DNA from: Arthrobacter alpinus
GTDB lineage: Bacteria; Actinomycetota; Actinomycetes; Actinomycetales; Micrococcaceae
Direction of reading: 5' to 3'
DNA length: 64,000 bases
Assembly: GCF_900105965.1 (NCBI RefSeq)
Contig: NZ_FNTV01000001.1
Span: 3,844,001-3,908,000 of the forward strand
In this document: positions 1,866-12,478 of the stretch, in pieces
How positions within the stretch are numbered: the first letter of the stretch is position 1
Layout of the letters: each line of letters starts with the position of its first letter
Position numbers and translations under genes: made by a program
Notes under the pieces: model-generated
Database searches by the model: none
What the model saw: only the letters and a program-made list of their open reading frames with translations
Told to the model about the DNA's origin: nothing

Positions 1866-3284
1866 TTGGCTACTCACCTCGCCCCTCGCCCGTTCCGCGT
1901 CGCCATTATTGGTTCCGGACCGGCCGGTGTCTATGCGGCCGACATCTTGACCAAGTCTCAAGAAGTATCCGGCGGCGACGTCCATGTCAGTATTGATCTA
2001 TTTGAGTCCCAGCCTGCCCCGTATGGCCTCATCCGCTACGGTGTTGCACCCGACCACCCGCGGATCAAGGGCATCATGAACGCCCTCCACAAGGTGCTGG
2101 ACCGTGGCGACATCCGTTTTTTCGGCAATGTCACGTACGGACGGGACGTGACATTGTCCGAGCTGCGTTCCTTCTATGACGCCATCATCTTCGCCACGGG
2201 CGCTACGAAGGACGCCGTGCTCGATATCCCCGGCATAGAGCTGGATGGCTCCTACGGTGGTGCAGACTTTGTCTCCTGGTACGACGGCCACCCGGATGTT
2301 TCCCGCGAATGGCCGCTGACCGCGAAGGAAATTGCCGTGATTGGCAATGGCAACGTGGCCCTGGATGTTGCACGCGTGTTGTCCAAACACGCTGATGATC
2401 TGCTGACCACCGAGATCCCGGACAATGTTTATGCCGGCCTGTTGGCCTCGCCCGTGACCGACGTGCATGTGTTCGGCCGCCGAGGCCCAGCACAGGTGAA
2501 GTTCACCCCTCTGGAACTGCGCGAACTCTCACATTCCCGCGACGTTGACATTGTCCTCTATGAGGAGGACTTTGATTTCGACGAAGCCTCGGACGCTGCC
2601 ATCAAGAGCAACAACCAGATCAAAATCATGGTCAATACACTCACCAACTGGCTGGTTGAGCAAGACGAGCGAGACTCCAAAACCCCTGCCTCACGCCGTC
2701 TACACCTACACTTCCTGCACACCCCGGTGGAGATTGTCGGCACGGAAGGCAAGGTCTCAGGCATCCGTTTTGAGCGTAATGAGCTTGACGGGACAGGAAA
2801 CGTTCGCGGCACGGGGGAGTTTATCGACTACCCGGTGCAGGCCGTGTATCGGGCCGTAGGCTACTTCGGTTCCGAACTCCCGGAGGTTGGCTTTGACGCC
2901 CGCCGCGGCATCATCCCTAACGACGGCGGGCGCGTGGTGGATGCCAACGGCACCCAGGTGCCAGGGCTGTATGCAACGGGGTGGATTAAGCGAGGTCCTG
3001 TTGGTCTCATTGGGCACACCAAAGGTGATGCCTTGGAAACCATCGGCTGCCTCCTGGAAGACAGGAGCGGACTTCCCGTTCCGGAACGGCCAGGTGAATC
3101 TGAAATCGTCAATTTGCTGGAATCCCGGGGCGTTGAGTACACAACGTGGGAGGGTTGGAGCAGGCTCGATGCCCATGAGAAAGACTTGGGTGCAAGCTTC
3201 ATCCCGGCGTCCGGCCTTGACATAGTTCGGGAGCGCGTCAAGGTTGTGGATCGCGATGAGATGGTGAAGATCTCCAGAACGTAG
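1866..3284 (+). CDS. fprA: FAD-dependent ferredoxin-NADP+ reductase (adrenodoxin reductase type)
   Basis: 472 residues, close to mycobacterial FprA (about 456). The enzyme moves electrons between NADPH and ferredoxin for P450 or other iron-sulfur partners in the cytoplasm. Visible motifs are GSGPAG (FAD, residues 16-21), the PAPYGLIRYGVAPDH segment, NADP-binding GNGNVALDVAR near residue 160, and the C-terminal GWIKRGPVGLIGHTKGDA block. These are characteristic of the adrenodoxin reductase/FprA branch rather than plant-type FNR. The start is TTG at 1866 with GGAAGGA 9-15 nt upstream. No ferredoxin or P450 gene lies beside it in this window. Confidence 0.92.
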   Translation: MATHLAPRPFRVAIIGSGPAGVYAADILTKSQEVSGGDVHVSIDLFESQPAPYGLIRYGVAPDHPRIKGIMNALHKVLDRGDIRFFGNVTYGRDVTLSELRSFYDAIIFATGATKDAVLDIPGIELDGSYGGADFVSWYDGHPDVSREWPLTAKEIAVIGNGNVALDVARVLSKHADDLLTTEIPDNVYAGLLASPVTDVHVFGRRGPAQVKFTPLELRELSHSRDVDIVLYEEDFDFDEASDAAIKSNNQIKIMVNTLTNWLVEQDERDSKTPASRRLHLHFLHTPVEIVGTEGKVSGIRFERNELDGTGNVRGTGEFIDYPVQAVYRAVGYFGSELPEVGFDARRGIIPNDGGRVVDANGTQVPGLYATGWIKRGPVGLIGHTKGDALETIGCLLEDRSGLPVPERPGESEIVNLLESRGVEYTTWEGWSRLDAHEKDLGASFIPASGLDIVRERVKVVDRDEMVKISRT

Positions 3285-3420
3285 ACGCCGCGCTCGCAGC
3301 CACCTCAACGTCCTTCAAAACTTTCGATCGTTTTTCTCGTCACGATTGCTCACGGCTCCACTCTCAATACATGACCAAACCGGAATTGCGGTTGGCATGA
3401 GGGAAAGCAGTGAGCTACAC

Positions 3421-5274
3421 ATGATGAGAAGAAACCTTTGGCGGGGACACAAAGTGGCGGGAGTCGTTGCGGCCGTGGCCGTTGCGGGCACGATGGCGGC
3501 AAGTGCTTTGCCGGCTATCGCAAGTCCCGATTCATCCTCCGTTGTGTCGGCAGCTGCCAGCGTGTCGCCCAACCCGGCGTTGCCGCAGAAATGTGGGCTG
3601 AATCTTGCCCTGGTTTTTGACCTTTCAAACTCCATGAGCGATTCCGATGTCAGCACGGTCAAGTCAGCCAGCGCTGAGGCAGTTGCGGCATTGTCCGGCA
3701 CGGGAACGACCATGGGTGTCTACAGCTTCGCAACTTTCGCCAAGCAGGAACTCACCGCCACCTCCTTGGCCTCGGAACAAGGCGCCGCAAGCGTAGTCAG
3801 CAGCATTAATGCCCTGACTCGCCCAGGCGATGCCAATACCTGGCACGGTGGCACCAACTGGCAGCAGGGTCTGAAGATTGTTCCCGAGGACACCTATGAC
3901 GGCGTGATCTTCTTTACCGACGGCGTGCCCACCTTCTACGGTGCAAATCCCCTGAACCAGAGTGGCAACGGAACCAATGGCACTGGTGGCACCGGAAACG
4001 ATTCGGCCGGCAACCCCGCTGAGTCGCTAAATGCGGCTATCCCAGAGGCGAATGTGCTCAAGGACTCCGGAACCCGAATCATCGGCGTGGGTGTCAGGGG
4101 CGCCGACGCCGATCGTCTGTCGCAGATCACCGGTCCCGTTCCCGATTCCGATTTCTACACCACCAACTATGACCAGTTGGCTGCGACCCTCAAGGACATC
4201 GCAACGGCCGGATGCACAGGAACGCTGAACATAAACAAGTCCGTTGAGGCCCACGATTCCACGGCCACGACACCCGGTGAAGGCTGGGTATTTGATGCTT
4301 TTGCCGATGGATCCGAGACGAAAACCCTCACCACCAACGTCAACGGTCAGGCCGGAATGAGCCTGAACTTCCCCGCACAGGAACCGGTCACCGTGACCAT
4401 CAAGGAACGGCAGCAGGACGGCTACACGGTTGTGCAGAAAAGCGGCTACAACGCTGTATGCACCCGAGATGGCCAGCCACTTGAGGTGGTCAACACCGGC
4501 GACGCCGGAAATGTCGGCTTTGCTATCACGGCCACAGCCGGCTCCATCACCTCGTGCACGGTTACCAACAAGGCGCCGGTCAAGTCCTGGACGATGGAGA
4601 AGTCCTCTGACACGGACGGCACCGTCAACCCAGGTGAAACCATCACCTACTCCGTAACAGCGAGCAACACGGGCGAACAGGCTGTAGACGGCATCTCCTT
4701 CCGCGATGACCTGACAGCTGTTTTGGAGCACGCCACCTACGTCACGGGTTCGGCGACCCTGGCCATCGGCGGAGCTGCTGGCACCGCTGTGTCAGATCCA
4801 TTGGCAGGCATTCTTTCGGCAGGCCCCCTCACCTTGGCAAAAGGGCAATCAGCTCTCCTGACTTACCAAGTCAAGGTCAACGGCGACGCCTTCAATGCAA
4901 CACTTATCAACGCCGTCACGGGTACCGGAGAGGTCCCGCCTTCCGCCTGTGTCCAGGAGCTCCCCTGCACCACCACGGACATTGTTCCGCCACAGCCCAC
5001 CGTGACACCGGAGCCGACTGAGACGCCGACCGTGACACCGGAGCCGGCTGAGACGCCGAGTCCCTCAGTAATTCCCTCCGCCCCGGGTACACCGAAAGCC
5101 TTGGTGGTGCCAGTAACTCCGGCTGCGCCTTCAACATCGATCGCGCCAGCATCGGCTGGAGATGACTTGGCTTACACAGGATCCTCCGCAGCACTGCCAG
5201 CAGTTCTTGGTGGCCTGTTGCTGATTGGTGGCTTGTTGCTCCTGGCTCTTCGACGAACTCGCCGGGCACACTAG
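3421..5274 (+). CDS. Von Willebrand factor A surface protein with DUF11-like domain and LAxTG sorting signal
   Basis: 617 residues from the ATG at 3421, which puts a positive N-terminus and hydrophobic signal peptide (about residues 12-34) in place. A longer frame from TTG 3346 exists but lacks a ribosome site. A vWA domain follows with a complete metal-ion-adhesion motif DLSNS (Asp67, Ser69, Ser71) and a later FFTDGVP strand. Next come a SpaA-like segment, a DUF11-type repeat (TITYSVTASNTGEQ) and a Thr/Pro/Glu stalk. The C-terminus has LAYTG, a hydrophobic helix and RRTRR, which is a sortase signal of the LAxTG type used by class E sortases of high-GC actinobacteria. It is therefore probably a wall-anchored adhesin. 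No sortase gene is in the window. The next gene encodes a tethered sigma factor with a similar stalk. Confidence 0.85.
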   Translation: MMRRNLWRGHKVAGVVAAVAVAGTMAASALPAIASPDSSSVVSAAASVSPNPALPQKCGLNLALVFDLSNSMSDSDVSTVKSASAEAVAALSGTGTTMGVYSFATFAKQELTATSLASEQGAASVVSSINALTRPGDANTWHGGTNWQQGLKIVPEDTYDGVIFFTDGVPTFYGANPLNQSGNGTNGTGGTGNDSAGNPAESLNAAIPEANVLKDSGTRIIGVGVRGADADRLSQITGPVPDSDFYTTNYDQLAATLKDIATAGCTGTLNINKSVEAHDSTATTPGEGWVFDAFADGSETKTLTTNVNGQAGMSLNFPAQEPVTVTIKERQQDGYTVVQKSGYNAVCTRDGQPLEVVNTGDAGNVGFAITATAGSITSCTVTNKAPVKSWTMEKSSDTDGTVNPGETITYSVTASNTGEQAVDGISFRDDLTAVLEHATYVTGSATLAIGGAAGTAVSDPLAGILSAGPLTLAKGQSALLTYQVKVNGDAFNATLINAVTGTGEVPPSACVQELPCTTTDIVPPQPTVTPEPTETPTVTPEPAETPSPSVIPSAPGTPKALVVPVTPAAPSTSIAPASAGDDLAYTGSSAALPAVLGGLLLIGGLLLLALRRTRRAH

Positions 5275-5300: not shown

Positions 5301-5341
5301 GTCGCGGGCTGCCCAGAGAACTCCTCCGGGCAGCCCGCGAC
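5301..5341 (+). terminator. Hairpin terminator candidate after the vWA gene
   Basis: A perfect 14-bp inverted repeat (5301-5314 with 5328-5341) and 13-nt loop lies 26 nt after the vWA stop codon. There is no T-run, so it may act weakly or only as mRNA 3' end protection. Confidence 0.5.
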
Positions 5342-5500
5342 TTCGGCACTTAACAGCTCCTTGGGGTACCGAAAAAGTTTTCAAAAAGTTATCAATTTTC
5401 GCGTCATGATTTCGCCTTTTGCACTCACAGCTTGGTTCTGGCAGATAGGTAGAATAGCCATGGCTCGGGGGACAGCAGATCGACGAAGGAGTTGAACGCC

Positions 5501-7228
5501 TTGAATGACTTGGGCAAAGAGCTAGACGATGCCTGCACGGCGAACAGTGACGAGCGGTTGATTCAACGAGTCCGAGACGGTGACGCTGGGGCATATGCAG
5601 ATCTCTATGAACGGCATCGTGGCGCAGCCCTGGCCACAGCCCAAAGCTATGCCCGCAACTCAACGGACGCCTCCGATTTTGTTGCCGACGCCTTCGCCAA
5701 TGTCCTGGCGGCCATCCGCAATGGGAACGGTCCCACGGTTTTTTTCCGCGCTTACCTACTCACCACCCTGCGAAGGTTGGCTACTGCCAAGCGCACAGTT
5801 GATGGGCGGCAAGTTGAAGTAGACGATCTTGAATCGGTTATGGCGGTGGAACCGGTCCAAGACCCGGCCGTAGCCTCCTTTGAGCGGGACGTCGTGGGCC
5901 GCTCATTCAAGGACCTGCCGGAACGATGGCAAGCCGTGCTTTGGTACACAGAAGTGGATGGGCTTTCTCCAGCTGCCGTTTCACCCATGCTTGGAATTTC
6001 GGCGAACGCTGTGGCTGCCTTGGCCGTCCGGGCCAGGGAAGGGCTGAAGCAGGCTTATCTGCAGAACCATATTTCCTCCGCCCATGACGGTTGTGCCGAG
6101 TTTTCGAAGCGATTGGGGGCCTACGCCCGGGGTGGGCTAACGCGCGGACGTGCCACTAAAGTGGCGGACCACCTGGAGGGCTGCTTGAAGTGCACCTCCT
6201 TGCTGATGCACATCCAGGATGTCGGCGTTGGCATGAGAACTGTCATTTTTCCTGCAGTGGTGGGTCTTGCCGCGGCTGGGCAAACAAGTGGCTTGATCGC
6301 CGGAGTTGCTTCCGCGCCGCTGACCGGGACCCGAACGCTAGGGTCGGGCACGGCATCGATTGGTGGCGCAGTGATGGTGACAGCCTCCGCCGTTGCCCTG
6401 TCCGGTGCACTCGTGGCCGTTGCCTTGGTGCTTCCAGGAGGAGCCGGGCTTGACAATTCGGACCTTCTGGAGGACTTGTCTGCTGGCGGAGCCAGCGTCC
6501 CGGCGCCGCAATACTGGGCAGCTGCGCCTGAGACAAACCCGGGACAGGCAGTGGAGGGCGAGCTGCCCGGAGTCATTTTCACCACTGTCGCCCCATCAAG
6601 CCCTTCGGAAACAACGCCGGTCCAGGAGCCAACGCCGATTCCCATGCCTGCTGTCGAAATGACCGTCTCACCGGCGCCGGCCTCTCCCTCATCAGGCTCC
6701 GGCGAAACGCCGAATCCGAGGGAAACCCCTACGCAAACGCCCTCCGGGCTACCGACGCCCGCACAGACAACTGTTCCTGAAGTCACGCCGCCGGCGACTG
6801 CAGAGCCGACTCCCGAACCAACGCCGTCGGCCACTGCTGAACCAACGCCCTCACAGGGTCCAACGCCCTCACCGACGCCGTTCACTGCTAGGGGCAAGGT
6901 GCTTGCACAGAATGGTTCGCAGAGCAGGCTTCAAATCGACCTGGTGAATCATGGTCTCGATGTCACCAGCCCCGCCGTCACCTTTTCGATTCCAAGGCTT
7001 TGGGCCGGGCAGGCTGTTCCTGTGACGGCTCCCGTGGGCTGGACATGCGTAGATTCGTCCACCATTTTCACCGTGGGAAGTACTTGCACGGCACCGGCAT
7101 GGGCAGCCGCGGAGGCTCGATTTCTGGTCAGCGTGATGACTCCGATCGTCGCTGATGGGTATTTCGTGAAAATCGACGCATCAGCAGATGGCGCCGAAAA
7201 ATACACCGGGTGGCTGCGACCCAAATAG
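5501..7228 (+). CDS. ECF-like sigma factor fused to zinc-finger, transmembrane segment and extracellular Pro/Thr-rich tail
   Basis: 575 residues, about three times the length of a plain ECF sigma. Region 2 (roughly residues 20-95, with LYERHRG and a YARNSTDASDFVADAF stretch) and region 4 (about 135-190, LPERWQAVLWYTEVDGLSP) are clear. A Cys198...His224-x3-Cys228-x2-Cys231 set follows, the zinc-finger pattern of anti-sigma factors. A strong membrane helix lies near residues 288-314. Then comes about 150 residues of Pro/Thr/Glu-rich stalk and a roughly 100-residue C-terminal domain resembling DUF11 or a beta-sandwich. The inferred topology places the sigma part inside and the tail outside, so release probably needs proteolysis. 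TTG 5501 is preferred over TTG 5492 because AAGGAG (5486-5491) is then 9 nt away. It lies downstream of the vWA surface protein. Confidence 0.85.
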   Translation: MNDLGKELDDACTANSDERLIQRVRDGDAGAYADLYERHRGAALATAQSYARNSTDASDFVADAFANVLAAIRNGNGPTVFFRAYLLTTLRRLATAKRTVDGRQVEVDDLESVMAVEPVQDPAVASFERDVVGRSFKDLPERWQAVLWYTEVDGLSPAAVSPMLGISANAVAALAVRAREGLKQAYLQNHISSAHDGCAEFSKRLGAYARGGLTRGRATKVADHLEGCLKCTSLLMHIQDVGVGMRTVIFPAVVGLAAAGQTSGLIAGVASAPLTGTRTLGSGTASIGGAVMVTASAVALSGALVAVALVLPGGAGLDNSDLLEDLSAGGASVPAPQYWAAAPETNPGQAVEGELPGVIFTTVAPSSPSETTPVQEPTPIPMPAVEMTVSPAPASPSSGSGETPNPRETPTQTPSGLPTPAQTTVPEVTPPATAEPTPEPTPSATAEPTPSQGPTPSPTPFTARGKVLAQNGSQSRLQIDLVNHGLDVTSPAVTFSIPRLWAGQAVPVTAPVGWTCVDSSTIFTVGSTCTAPAWAAAEARFLVSVMTPIVADGYFVKIDASADGAEKYTGWLRPK

Positions 7229-11011: not shown

Positions 11012-12478
11012 ATGACTATCGAAAACACCGCCCCCCTGACCACGGCAGCCGGCGCACCTGTTGCCAACAACCAGGACAGCCTCACCGCCGGCCCCCGTGG
11101 CCCGATGCTGCTGCAGGACGTCTGGTTCCTTGAAAAACTGGCCCACTTCAGCCGTGAGGTCATCCCCGAGCGCCGCATGCACGCCAAGGGCTCCGGCGCC
11201 TTCGGCACGTTCACGGTCACGAACGACATCACCAAATACACCAAGGCTGACATTTTCTCCGAGATTGGCAAGCAGACGGAAATGTTTGCCCGCTTCTCCA
11301 CGGTTGCCGGTGAGCGCGGCGCTGCCGATGCCGAGCGCGACATCCGCGGCTTTTCCCTGAAGTTCTACACCGAAGAGGGCAACTGGGACCTGGTTGGCAA
11401 CAACACCCCCGTGTTCTTCTTCCGCGATCCGTTGAAGTTCCCCGACCTGAACCGCGCAGTGAAGCGCGATCCCCGCACCAACATGCGCAGCGCCGAGAAC
11501 AACTGGGACTTCTGGACCAACCTGCCCGAGTCCCTGCACCAGGTCACGATCGTCATGTCCGACCGCGGCATCCCGGCCAGCTACCGCCACATGCACGGCT
11601 TTGGCTCGCACACCTTCTCCCTCATCAACGCCGCAGGCGAGCGTTTCTGGGTCAAGTTCCACCACGTCACCCAGCAGGGCATCAAGAACCTGACCGACGC
11701 CGAAGCCGGCGCAGTGGTGGCCGCAGACCGCGAGTCCAGCCAGCGCGACCTCTTCGATTCCATCGAGAACGGTGACTTCCCGAAGTGGAAGCTCATGGTC
11801 CAGATCATGCCCGAGGCTGACGCTGACACCTACAAGTACCACCCCTTCGACCTCACCAAGGTCTGGTCCAAGAAGGACTACCCGCTGATCGAGGTTGGCG
11901 AGTGGGAACTGAACCGCAACTCCGAGAACTACTTCGCAGACGTTGAGCAGTCCGCCTTCACCCCGGCCAACGTTGTTCCCGGCATCAGCTTCTCCCCGGA
12001 CCGCATGCTTCAGGGCCGTCTGTTCTCCTACGGCGACGCCGCCCGCTACCGCCTGGGTGTCAACCACCACCAGATCCCTGTCAACGCCGCGCGCAACAGC
12101 GTCAACACGTACCACCGCGACGGCCAAGGCCGCGTTGATGGCAACCAGGGCCGCACCCCCGGCATCGAGCCGAACTCATACGGCCGCTGGCCCGAGCAGC
12201 CGGCCTACGCCGATCCGGCACAGGCCATTGGCGCCGTTGCTGACCGCTTCAACTTCCGCGAAGACGATGCCAACTACTTCGAGCAGCCCGGCATCTTGTT
12301 CCGCGAGAAGATGACGGACGAGCAGCGTCAGGTGCTCTTCGAGAACACCGCTCGCGCCATCGACGGTGCCTCACAGGCCACCATTGAGCGCCACATCTTC
12401 AACTGCACCCAGGCCGATCCCGCCTACGGTGAAGGTGTTCGCAAGGCCATCGAGGCCCACCAGGCGTCCAAGGCCTAG
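11012..12478 (+). CDS. katA: Monofunctional heme catalase (clade 3 type)
   Basis: 488 residues, normal for small-subunit catalases. It converts hydrogen peroxide to water and oxygen. The distal active-site histidine lies in [12 protein letters not shown] (His57), the catalytic Asn in the [17 protein letters not shown] region, and the proximal heme Tyr in [14 protein letters not shown] near 12020-12060. The [11 protein letters not shown] block is also conserved. It follows a Fur-type regulator by 2 nt with a GGAGCGAT ribosome site inside that gene's end. Codon use is strongly biased to C-ending codons compared with neighbours, which suggests high expression. A very strong palindromic terminator follows. 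Confidence 0.97.

What the first reader, a model, noticed from the sequence alone, without database searches (positions are those of the whole stretch)
5501..7228. Sigma factor fused to its own anti-sigma-like zinc finger, membrane anchor and extracellular tail
One polypeptide carries sigma regions 2 and 4, a C...H-x3-C-x2-C zinc-finger pattern, a transmembrane helix, a long Pro/Thr stalk and a beta-rich C-terminal domain. This would keep a sigma factor at the membrane until a signal or protease frees it. Sigma factors with C-terminal extensions of this type are known in actinobacteria, but ligand and release mechanism are mostly unknown.
Basis: partly seen in the sequence, partly recalled or inferred. 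Interest (0 to 1): 0.7.

Follow-up and report, generated by a model that had tools for sequence, protein, structure and literature searches.

The report
Membrane-anchored sigma factor beside surface-protein gene
An actinobacterium makes a transcription factor that is built into the cell membrane together with its own likely inhibitor and an outside sensor; DNA signals suggest that it switches on itself and the neighbouring cell-surface protein gene, and a few relatives carry a pilus protein as the sensor.

Summary
Window 5501-7228 (+) encodes one 575-aa protein: sigma regions 2 and 4, a zf-HC2 anti-sigma zinc motif, one TM helix, a Pro/Thr stalk and a beta-rich C-terminal domain. It is not a frameshift product: orthologues are single ORFs. 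The architecture is published (actinobacterial ECF52/ECF53; S. coelicolor SCO4117), but no carbohydrate-binding domain, part of the ECF52 definition, was found here.

Three things look new. (1) A promoter-like motif, CGTCAYGA-N14/15-CTCWCA, lies before this gene (5402-5429) and before the adjacent sortase-anchored VWA surface-protein gene (3338-3366); both sites recur in close relatives. A matrix built only from sites before a different gene in other genera finds the surface-gene site here. So the fused sigma probably transcribes itself and that surface protein. (2) Relatives keep the sigma/zinc/TM chassis but swap tails; in three genomes the tail is a sortase-type backbone pilin, 79-84% identical to the pilin encoded downstream. 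(3) Many relatives (65 of 80 named loci) carry an adjacent degenerate-GGDEF partner gene, not found in this genome.

Ligand and release mechanism remain untested. Verdict: new variant of a known kind.

The parts
5501..7228 (+). sigma - zinc finger - TM - stalk - beta-domain fusion protein, 575 aa, TTG start
5486..5491 (+). ribosome-binding site AAGGAG for the start at 5501
   Evidence: read directly
5603..5782 (+). sigma region 2 (residues 35-94)
   Evidence: Pfam Sigma70_r2 E 4.8e-8
5915..6040 (+). sigma region 4 (residues 139-180)
   Evidence: Pfam Sigma70_r4_2 E 3e-4, below gathering score here; supported by NCBIfam sigma70-ECF 4.7e-14 over 34-188 in 578-aa numbering
6092..6193 (+). anti-sigma-type zinc motif C198-x25-H224-x3-C228-x2-C231
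   Evidence: zf-HC2 E 6.5e-6; all four ligands in 191 of 193 chassis
6377..6433 (+). transmembrane helix (residues 293-311), inferred N-inside
   Evidence: hydrophobicity, charge bias in the family
6434..6880 (+). Pro/Thr-rich stalk, extracytoplasmic by inference
6881..7225 (+). C-terminal beta domain with conserved GWxC...C; no convincing Pfam or PDB sequence match
5402..5429 (+). promoter-like site CGTCATGA-N14-CTCACA before the sigma gene
   Evidence: like sites before the L013-L016 and L018 sigma genes
3338..3366 (+). promoter-like site CGTCACGA-N15-CTCTCA before the surface-protein gene
   Evidence: 17.2 bits with a matrix trained on other genera
3346..5274 (+). adjacent surface-protein gene (VWA, DUF7927/DUF11, LAYTG sorting signal, 642-aa ORF); probable true start ATG 3421, downstream of the promoter-like site
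   Evidence: start inferred by comparison with L014/L015
5301..5341 (.). perfect 14-bp inverted repeat between the two genes, possible terminator
   Evidence: read directly; no T-run, and not in the list

Best explanation
It is a membrane-anchored ECF sigma factor fused to its own class-I-type (zinc) anti-sigma domain and to an extracytoplasmic sensor. Shown by sequence: the domains, the single ORF, the zinc ligands, the TM, and the shared promoter-like motif before this gene and before the neighbouring LAYTG surface-protein gene. Inferred: (a) the zinc domain holds sigma regions 2 and 4 inactive at the membrane; (b) an event at the outside beta domain, probably linked to the state of the cell surface or its sortase-anchored proteins, breaks this hold, most likely by regulated proteolysis; (c) the freed or opened sigma reads CGTCAYGA-N14/15-CTCWCA, raising its own synthesis and that of the adjacent VWA surface protein. 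The circuit would couple transcription of one surface protein to what happens at the surface.
For: Domains. Zinc ligands in 191 of 193. Topology. The strict motif has 22 unique sites in five same-genus genomes. Ten of the 22 lie just before the fused sigma gene or its neighbouring surface gene, two per genome in all five; in G007 the search led to the VWA gene at the end of another contig. In G016 the neighbour is a different, 2159-aa SdrD_B/SpaA protein, yet the site is there. A matrix trained on 18 unique sites before the partner gene of relatives, none from the window's clade, scores the window surface-gene site 17.2 bits and finds 9 of 22 neighbouring LPXTG genes at >10 bits, against 1 on the opposite strand and 0 in reversed controls. 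By a home-made sorting-signal rule, LPXTG-like genes lie within 1.5 kb of the fused sigma in 19 of 72 family loci, 8.9 per 100 kb against 2 in 374 kb of 20 control loci (p 4e-7, not corrected for relatedness). This state changes at least 17 times on the tree. Three sigma-pilin fusions sit before pilin genes, with a relaxed-motif site before the next gene in two of the three. A truncated SCO4117 without zinc finger, TM and carbohydrate module shows raised SCO4117 expression (PMC5826349, passage).
Against: No expression, binding or protease data. Genome-wide the strict motif is no commoner than its reversed control in the window's own genome (6 against 8; 22 unique sites against 15 over five genomes); only its positions are remarkable. 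The site before the sigma gene has a 1-nt shorter spacer and CTCACA, and the fixed-length matrix misses it. Both patterns were shaped on sites already seen, the relaxed one after more of them. Only 31 of 195 other loci have a relaxed-motif site within 1.5 kb of or in the sigma gene. The two own-genome paralogues have no strict site near them; their neighbouring LPXTG genes score 8.8 (L020) and 11.3 bits (L021). Five Streptomyces-like loci of the ECF52-type tail group (NPCBM confirmed in L119; same group by BLAST) lack it in the sigma upstream region. LPXTG neighbours are rare outside the family: 2 of 44 class loci and 1 of 80 named loci. Of 20 pilin loci picked by pilin similarity only 3 carry a fused sigma. 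The window protein has no sorting signal of its own, and its tail shows no similarity to the neighbour.
Confidence: 0.6

Rival explanations
1. It is an ordinary ECF52/53-like sensor of envelope or carbohydrate state with a broad regulon; the neighbouring surface gene is incidental.
For: Same architecture as SCO4117, which affects many genes (PMC5826349, passages). Relatives of the chassis carry ricin-B, NPCBM, Ig or DUF11 tails.
Against: Two of the six strict-motif sites in the genome fall exactly before this gene and its neighbour; LPXTG adjacency is enriched in the family and recurs on the tree.
Confidence: 0.15
2. The motif is read by another regulator, or by a different sigma factor, that controls both genes; the fused sigma has other targets.
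For: No direct link between sigma and motif was measured; the ECF52-type loci tested lack it; CGTCAYGA is not the common ECF GGAAC-type -35 (recalled).
Against: The motif points at the gene it precedes and keeps a near-fixed length, as a promoter does. Relaxed sites cluster at fused-sigma genes: 43 of 49 within 1.5 kb or inside, 0 in 20 control loci. It persists at loci that lack the partner gene, in a genome where no partner was found.
Confidence: 0.15
3. The sigma factor is never released: it works in place at the membrane, opened by a conformational change passed through the TM.
For: Pinto and Mascher, as cited in PMC5826349, allow a conformational route; no cleavage site was looked for or identified here.
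Against: A fused membrane sigma with known biology, IutY, is released by Prc and RseP (PMC8999054, passage).
Confidence: 0.15

Closest known systems
ECF52 sigma factors (SCO4117, Streptomyces coelicolor)
   Same: Sigma domains, zf-HC2, TM, Pro-rich stalk, outside C-terminal domain; window chassis 43-44% identical to Streptomyces-like chassis of the NPCBM-tail group. SCO4117 itself was not compared.
   Different: Tail is an unannotated GWxC...C beta domain; no carbohydrate-binding module found. The inferred promoter motif is absent upstream of the five NPCBM-group loci tested.
ECF53 and ECF48 sigma factors
   Same: C-terminal fusions with zinc finger and one or two TM helices, expected to be activated by proteolysis (PMC8999054 passage).
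   Different: Group models are not on hand; membership could not be tested.
IutY (ECF243), Pseudomonas putida
   Same: Sigma factor fused to a membrane anti-sigma part; released by proteolysis (passage).
   Different: Iron/siderophore cell-surface signalling; no sequence comparison was made.
Class I anti-sigma domains (ASDI)
   Same: Hx3Cx2C motif in a helical region (PMC7406223 passages).
   Different: Here in the same chain as the sigma factor; the model draws one long helix 229-262 where ASDIs have helix 3, a linker and helix 4; binding to sigma 2 and 4 is not shown.

Membership tests
ECF sigma factor | sigma-70 regions 2 and 4 (and, recalled, no region 3) | tested here: met
   region 4 is below the Pfam gathering score in this sequence alone; no region 3 family was listed
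ECF52 | zinc finger, TM and proline-rich C-terminal extension | tested here: met
   definition from PMC5826349
ECF52 | carbohydrate-binding domain in the C-terminal extension | tested here: not met
   no Pfam family at E<=1 for the window tail; Streptomyces-like relative L119 has NPCBM 3.2e-27
ECF52 | placement in the published phylogenetic group | not testable with these tools
   group models not on hand; classification paper not held
ECF53 | placement in the published phylogenetic group | not testable with these tools
   as above
Class I anti-sigma domain | Hx3Cx2C zinc motif | tested here: met
   H224-x3-C228-x2-C231
Class I anti-sigma domain | binds sigma 2 and sigma 4 and blocks core polymerase | not testable with these tools
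   no complex or assay; AF2 pTM 0.29
Sortase-anchored protein (for the fusion itself) | C-terminal sorting signal | tested here: not met
   none in the window protein; among sigma ORFs of the 196 loci held then only L177 has one, and later L228, L229

The most novel reading that the evidence does not exclude
A widespread actinobacterial family of membrane-tethered sigma factors is, in one branch, wired into sortase-assembled surface structures: each reads its own promoter class to make a neighbouring surface protein or pilus, and senses that structure through an exchangeable tail. In three genomes of this bacterial family the sensor is a copy of the pilin itself, with a sorting signal, so sortase could link the sigma factor's outside part covalently to the pilus or wall and report assembly to RNA polymerase.
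Probability: 0.35. Interest if true: 0.85.

Novelty: new variant of a known kind. Interest (0 to 1): 0.6.

Why it matters
In the papers I could see, signal, promoter and targets of fused membrane sigma factors are open; the first ECF52 member characterised has two differing theoretical motifs (PMC5826349, passage). This case gives a concrete promoter candidate, a two-gene target set and a natural experiment, sigma factors fused to pilins, that make the question 'what do they sense and switch on' directly testable. If true, it is a one-protein route from surface-structure assembly to transcription.

Tried and rejected
Rejected: frameshift or mis-joined genes (orthologues are single ORFs). Rejected: two membrane passes with an inside tail; the conserved IFPAVVGLA segment is hydrophobic (median KD19 1.49 in the family) but charge bias puts the C-terminal side outside, AF2 draws that segment as the end of a long helix 229-262, and some relatives carry lectin or LPXTG-pilin tails. 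Rejected: similarity between the window tail and its VWA neighbour (hhalign probability 0.2%). Weak: the reverse test, that pilus loci in general carry a fused sigma, gave 3 of 20. The orphan intergenic strict-motif site at G000:C1:3703217 has no convincing downstream gene; the other three non-locus sites in G000 lie inside or at the edge of ORFs. sigma-70 promoter scan: no match at either site. The p values ignore relatedness and, for the motif, that it was defined on some of the same sites; I do not rely on those for the motif.

Papers: PMC8999054, PMC5826349 and PMC7406223 seen as passages; all others only as search listings. 'Not found in print' rests in one open-access library that lacks most subscription papers; the main ECF classification paper is not held. 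The common ECF -35 type is recalled.

Full report
WHAT IS THERE. The window gene is a single open frame of 575 codons from TTG 5501, with AAGGAG nine bases upstream. Pfam finds Sigma70_r2, zf-HC2 (both above their gathering scores) and Sigma70_r4_2 (E 3e-4, below its gathering score); NCBIfam's general ECF model covers both sigma regions (E 4.7e-14). The zinc pattern is C198-x25-H224-x3-C228-x2-C231. One TM helix, residues 293-311, is followed by a stalk that is 56% P/T/S/E and by a C-terminal beta domain. AlphaFold2 on 16 sequences gave mean pLDDT 65, pTM 0.29; most of the sigma part and the C-terminal domain are confident, the TM and most of the stalk are not, so domain arrangement is not shown.

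FAMILY. A profile of the sigma-to-zinc chassis (16 sequences) matches at E<=1e-25 in 50 of 149 genomes of the same family and 95 of 246 of the class; some class matches are sigma-only partial hits (for example G239), so these counts overstate fused proteins, and the class list was cut. I took loci around chassis matches, a part of those lists: 116 with the window, plus 80 titled loci, the best of 581 in a capped scan; a few loci occur in both sets (for example L019 and L148). All four zinc ligands are present in 191 of 193 distinct chassis; the set was chosen by the profile, so it leans that way. Tails are very diverse: those of the 116 loci fall into 69 groups at BLAST E 1e-6 over 60 aa or more, a few of them cut-off or very short tails. 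They include Ricin_B (own-genome paralogue L020, E 9.7e-24), a weak Big_6 match (own-genome paralogue L021), NPCBM (L119), Ig plus ricin (L115) and DUF11 (L024). The window's GWxC...C domain, by iterated search, occurs in fused sigmas of 59 of 196 loci and in 2 other ORFs of the loci held, one of them just after a fused sigma; no Pfam or PDB sequence family matches it convincingly.

NEIGHBOURS. The gene upstream of the window's sigma encodes a VWA/DUF7927 protein with a LAYTG sorting signal. By a home-made rule for sorting signals, LPXTG-like genes lie within 1.5 kb of the fused sigma in 19 of 72 family loci and 2 of 44 class loci, and 1 of 80 titled loci. Density is 8.9 per 100 kb in family loci against 2 genes in 374 kb of 20 control loci from the same family. 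The rule misses some: the tip-pilin-like 955-aa protein of L022 was not called. The state changes at least 17 times on a FastTree tree of 193 chassis (21 rows with it). The own-genome paralogue on the second contig (L021) is divergent from pilin-like genes and a sortase.

SIGMA-PILIN FUSIONS. In Arthrobacter alkaliphilus (L177) the tail is a full backbone pilin (GramPos_pilinD1 2.5e-26, SpaA 3.6e-21) with its own LPTTG signal. The tail pilin is 79%, 80% and 84% identical to the separate pilin encoded downstream; a sortase gene follows in L228 and L229, while L177's locus ends before that point. A search with that pilin in 395 family genomes found matches in 41. Of 20 of those loci then inspected, 3 carry a chassis sigma, two of them these fusions; three more (G000, G006, G081) were known beforehand as chassis loci and left out; the rest were not inspected.

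PROMOTER-LIKE MOTIF. Alignment of upstream regions in the window's clade showed CGTCAYGA-N14/15-CTCWCA before the sigma gene and before the surface gene. In five whole genomes the strict pattern gives 22 unique sites; 10 are these, two per genome; the reversed pattern gives 15. In the window's genome alone it is 6 against 8. L016 has both sites although its neighbour is a different protein from the VWA one; L017 and L019 have a site before a 161-aa gene that lies upstream of sigma, and none before sigma. A word-pair count over 193 upstream regions found, among its top pairs, the same two boxes on the opposite strand: in other genera the motif points at a divergent partner gene. A matrix from 18 unique partner-gene sites scores >10 bits before 50 of 111 partner genes, training sites included (5 on the opposite strand, 2 reversed), and before 9 of 22 adjacent LPXTG genes (1, 0). 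A relaxed pattern, drawn after seeing these sites, has 43 matches in 1.52 Mb of 84 loci and 0 reversed. Over 195 loci, excluding the window, 43 of 49 matches lie within 1.5 kb of or inside a fused sigma gene, in 31 loci; 20 random loci have none, 18 pilin loci have 1. It lies before the large gene that follows the sigma-pilin fusions L177 and L228, not in L229. Five Streptomyces-like NPCBM-group loci lack the motif upstream of sigma.

PARTNER GENE. A protein of about 250 aa is encoded next to the fused sigma, mostly divergent, in 45 of 116 loci (in two of them farther off or downstream) and 65 of 80 titled loci, against 0 of 20 control loci. Its profile matches GGDEF structures (7e6g E 6.8e-8, FimX 2.9e-5); 2 of 25 members match Pfam GGDEF_2, and the catalytic motif looks degenerate (by eye). 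A profile search finds none in the window's genome nor in six of seven same-genus genomes; G006 has one far from its locus, and both genomes included as positive controls gave hits. Here the surface gene stands where others have the partner.

MECHANISM. Shown: domains, conservation, motif positions. Inferred: inhibition by the zinc domain, activation from outside, release by proteolysis (published proposal for ECF52), and transcription of the two genes. A perfect 14-bp inverted repeat at 5301-5341 suggests that the two genes are separate units, each with its own site.

JUDGEMENT. The architecture is known. The specific tail, the deduced promoter and target pair, the sortase link and the sigma-pilin fusions were not found in the library searched, which is incomplete.

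Noticed in passing
L024:7194-7982 (-), L026:9252-10022 (+), L205:6061-6822 (-) and others: Degenerate-GGDEF partner gene, mostly divergent from the fused sigma gene in many genera, with the same promoter-like motif pointing at it in 50 of 111 cases; no Pfam match for most members tested.
   Followed up: partly
L177:6947-9541, L228:6774-9365, L229:6729-9362 (+): Sigma - zinc finger - TM fused to a whole backbone pilin with its own sorting signal, upstream of a gene for a pilin 79-84% identical to the tail.
   Followed up: partly
G000:C1:2711052 (L020) and G000:C2:342668 (L021): Two further fused sigma paralogues in the window's genome, one with a ricin-B tail beside an 874-aa LAYTG protein, one beside sortase and pilin-like genes.
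   Followed up: partly
window 1866-3284 and 11012-12478; L028, L029, L030, L034, L044, L073, L079: Genes that look like a ferredoxin-NADP reductase and a catalase (named from sequence, recalled) lie on one or both sides of the fused sigma gene in several genera.
   Followed up: no
G156: One 3.2-Mb genome holds nine chassis matches.
   Followed up: no
L148 / G013:C12: Contig titled Sporosarcina beigongshangi has the same length (403572) as a contig of a genome classed in the window's own genus; the record's name looks wrong.
   Followed up: no
L035:10733-10761, L036:10608-10636, L161:8654-8682: Motif sites also lie just after the sigma gene; in L035 and L036 the genes that follow include an ATP-grasp-like enzyme (named from sequence).
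   Followed up: no
G000:C1:3703217-3703245: Strict intergenic motif site with no clear downstream gene.
   Followed up: partly
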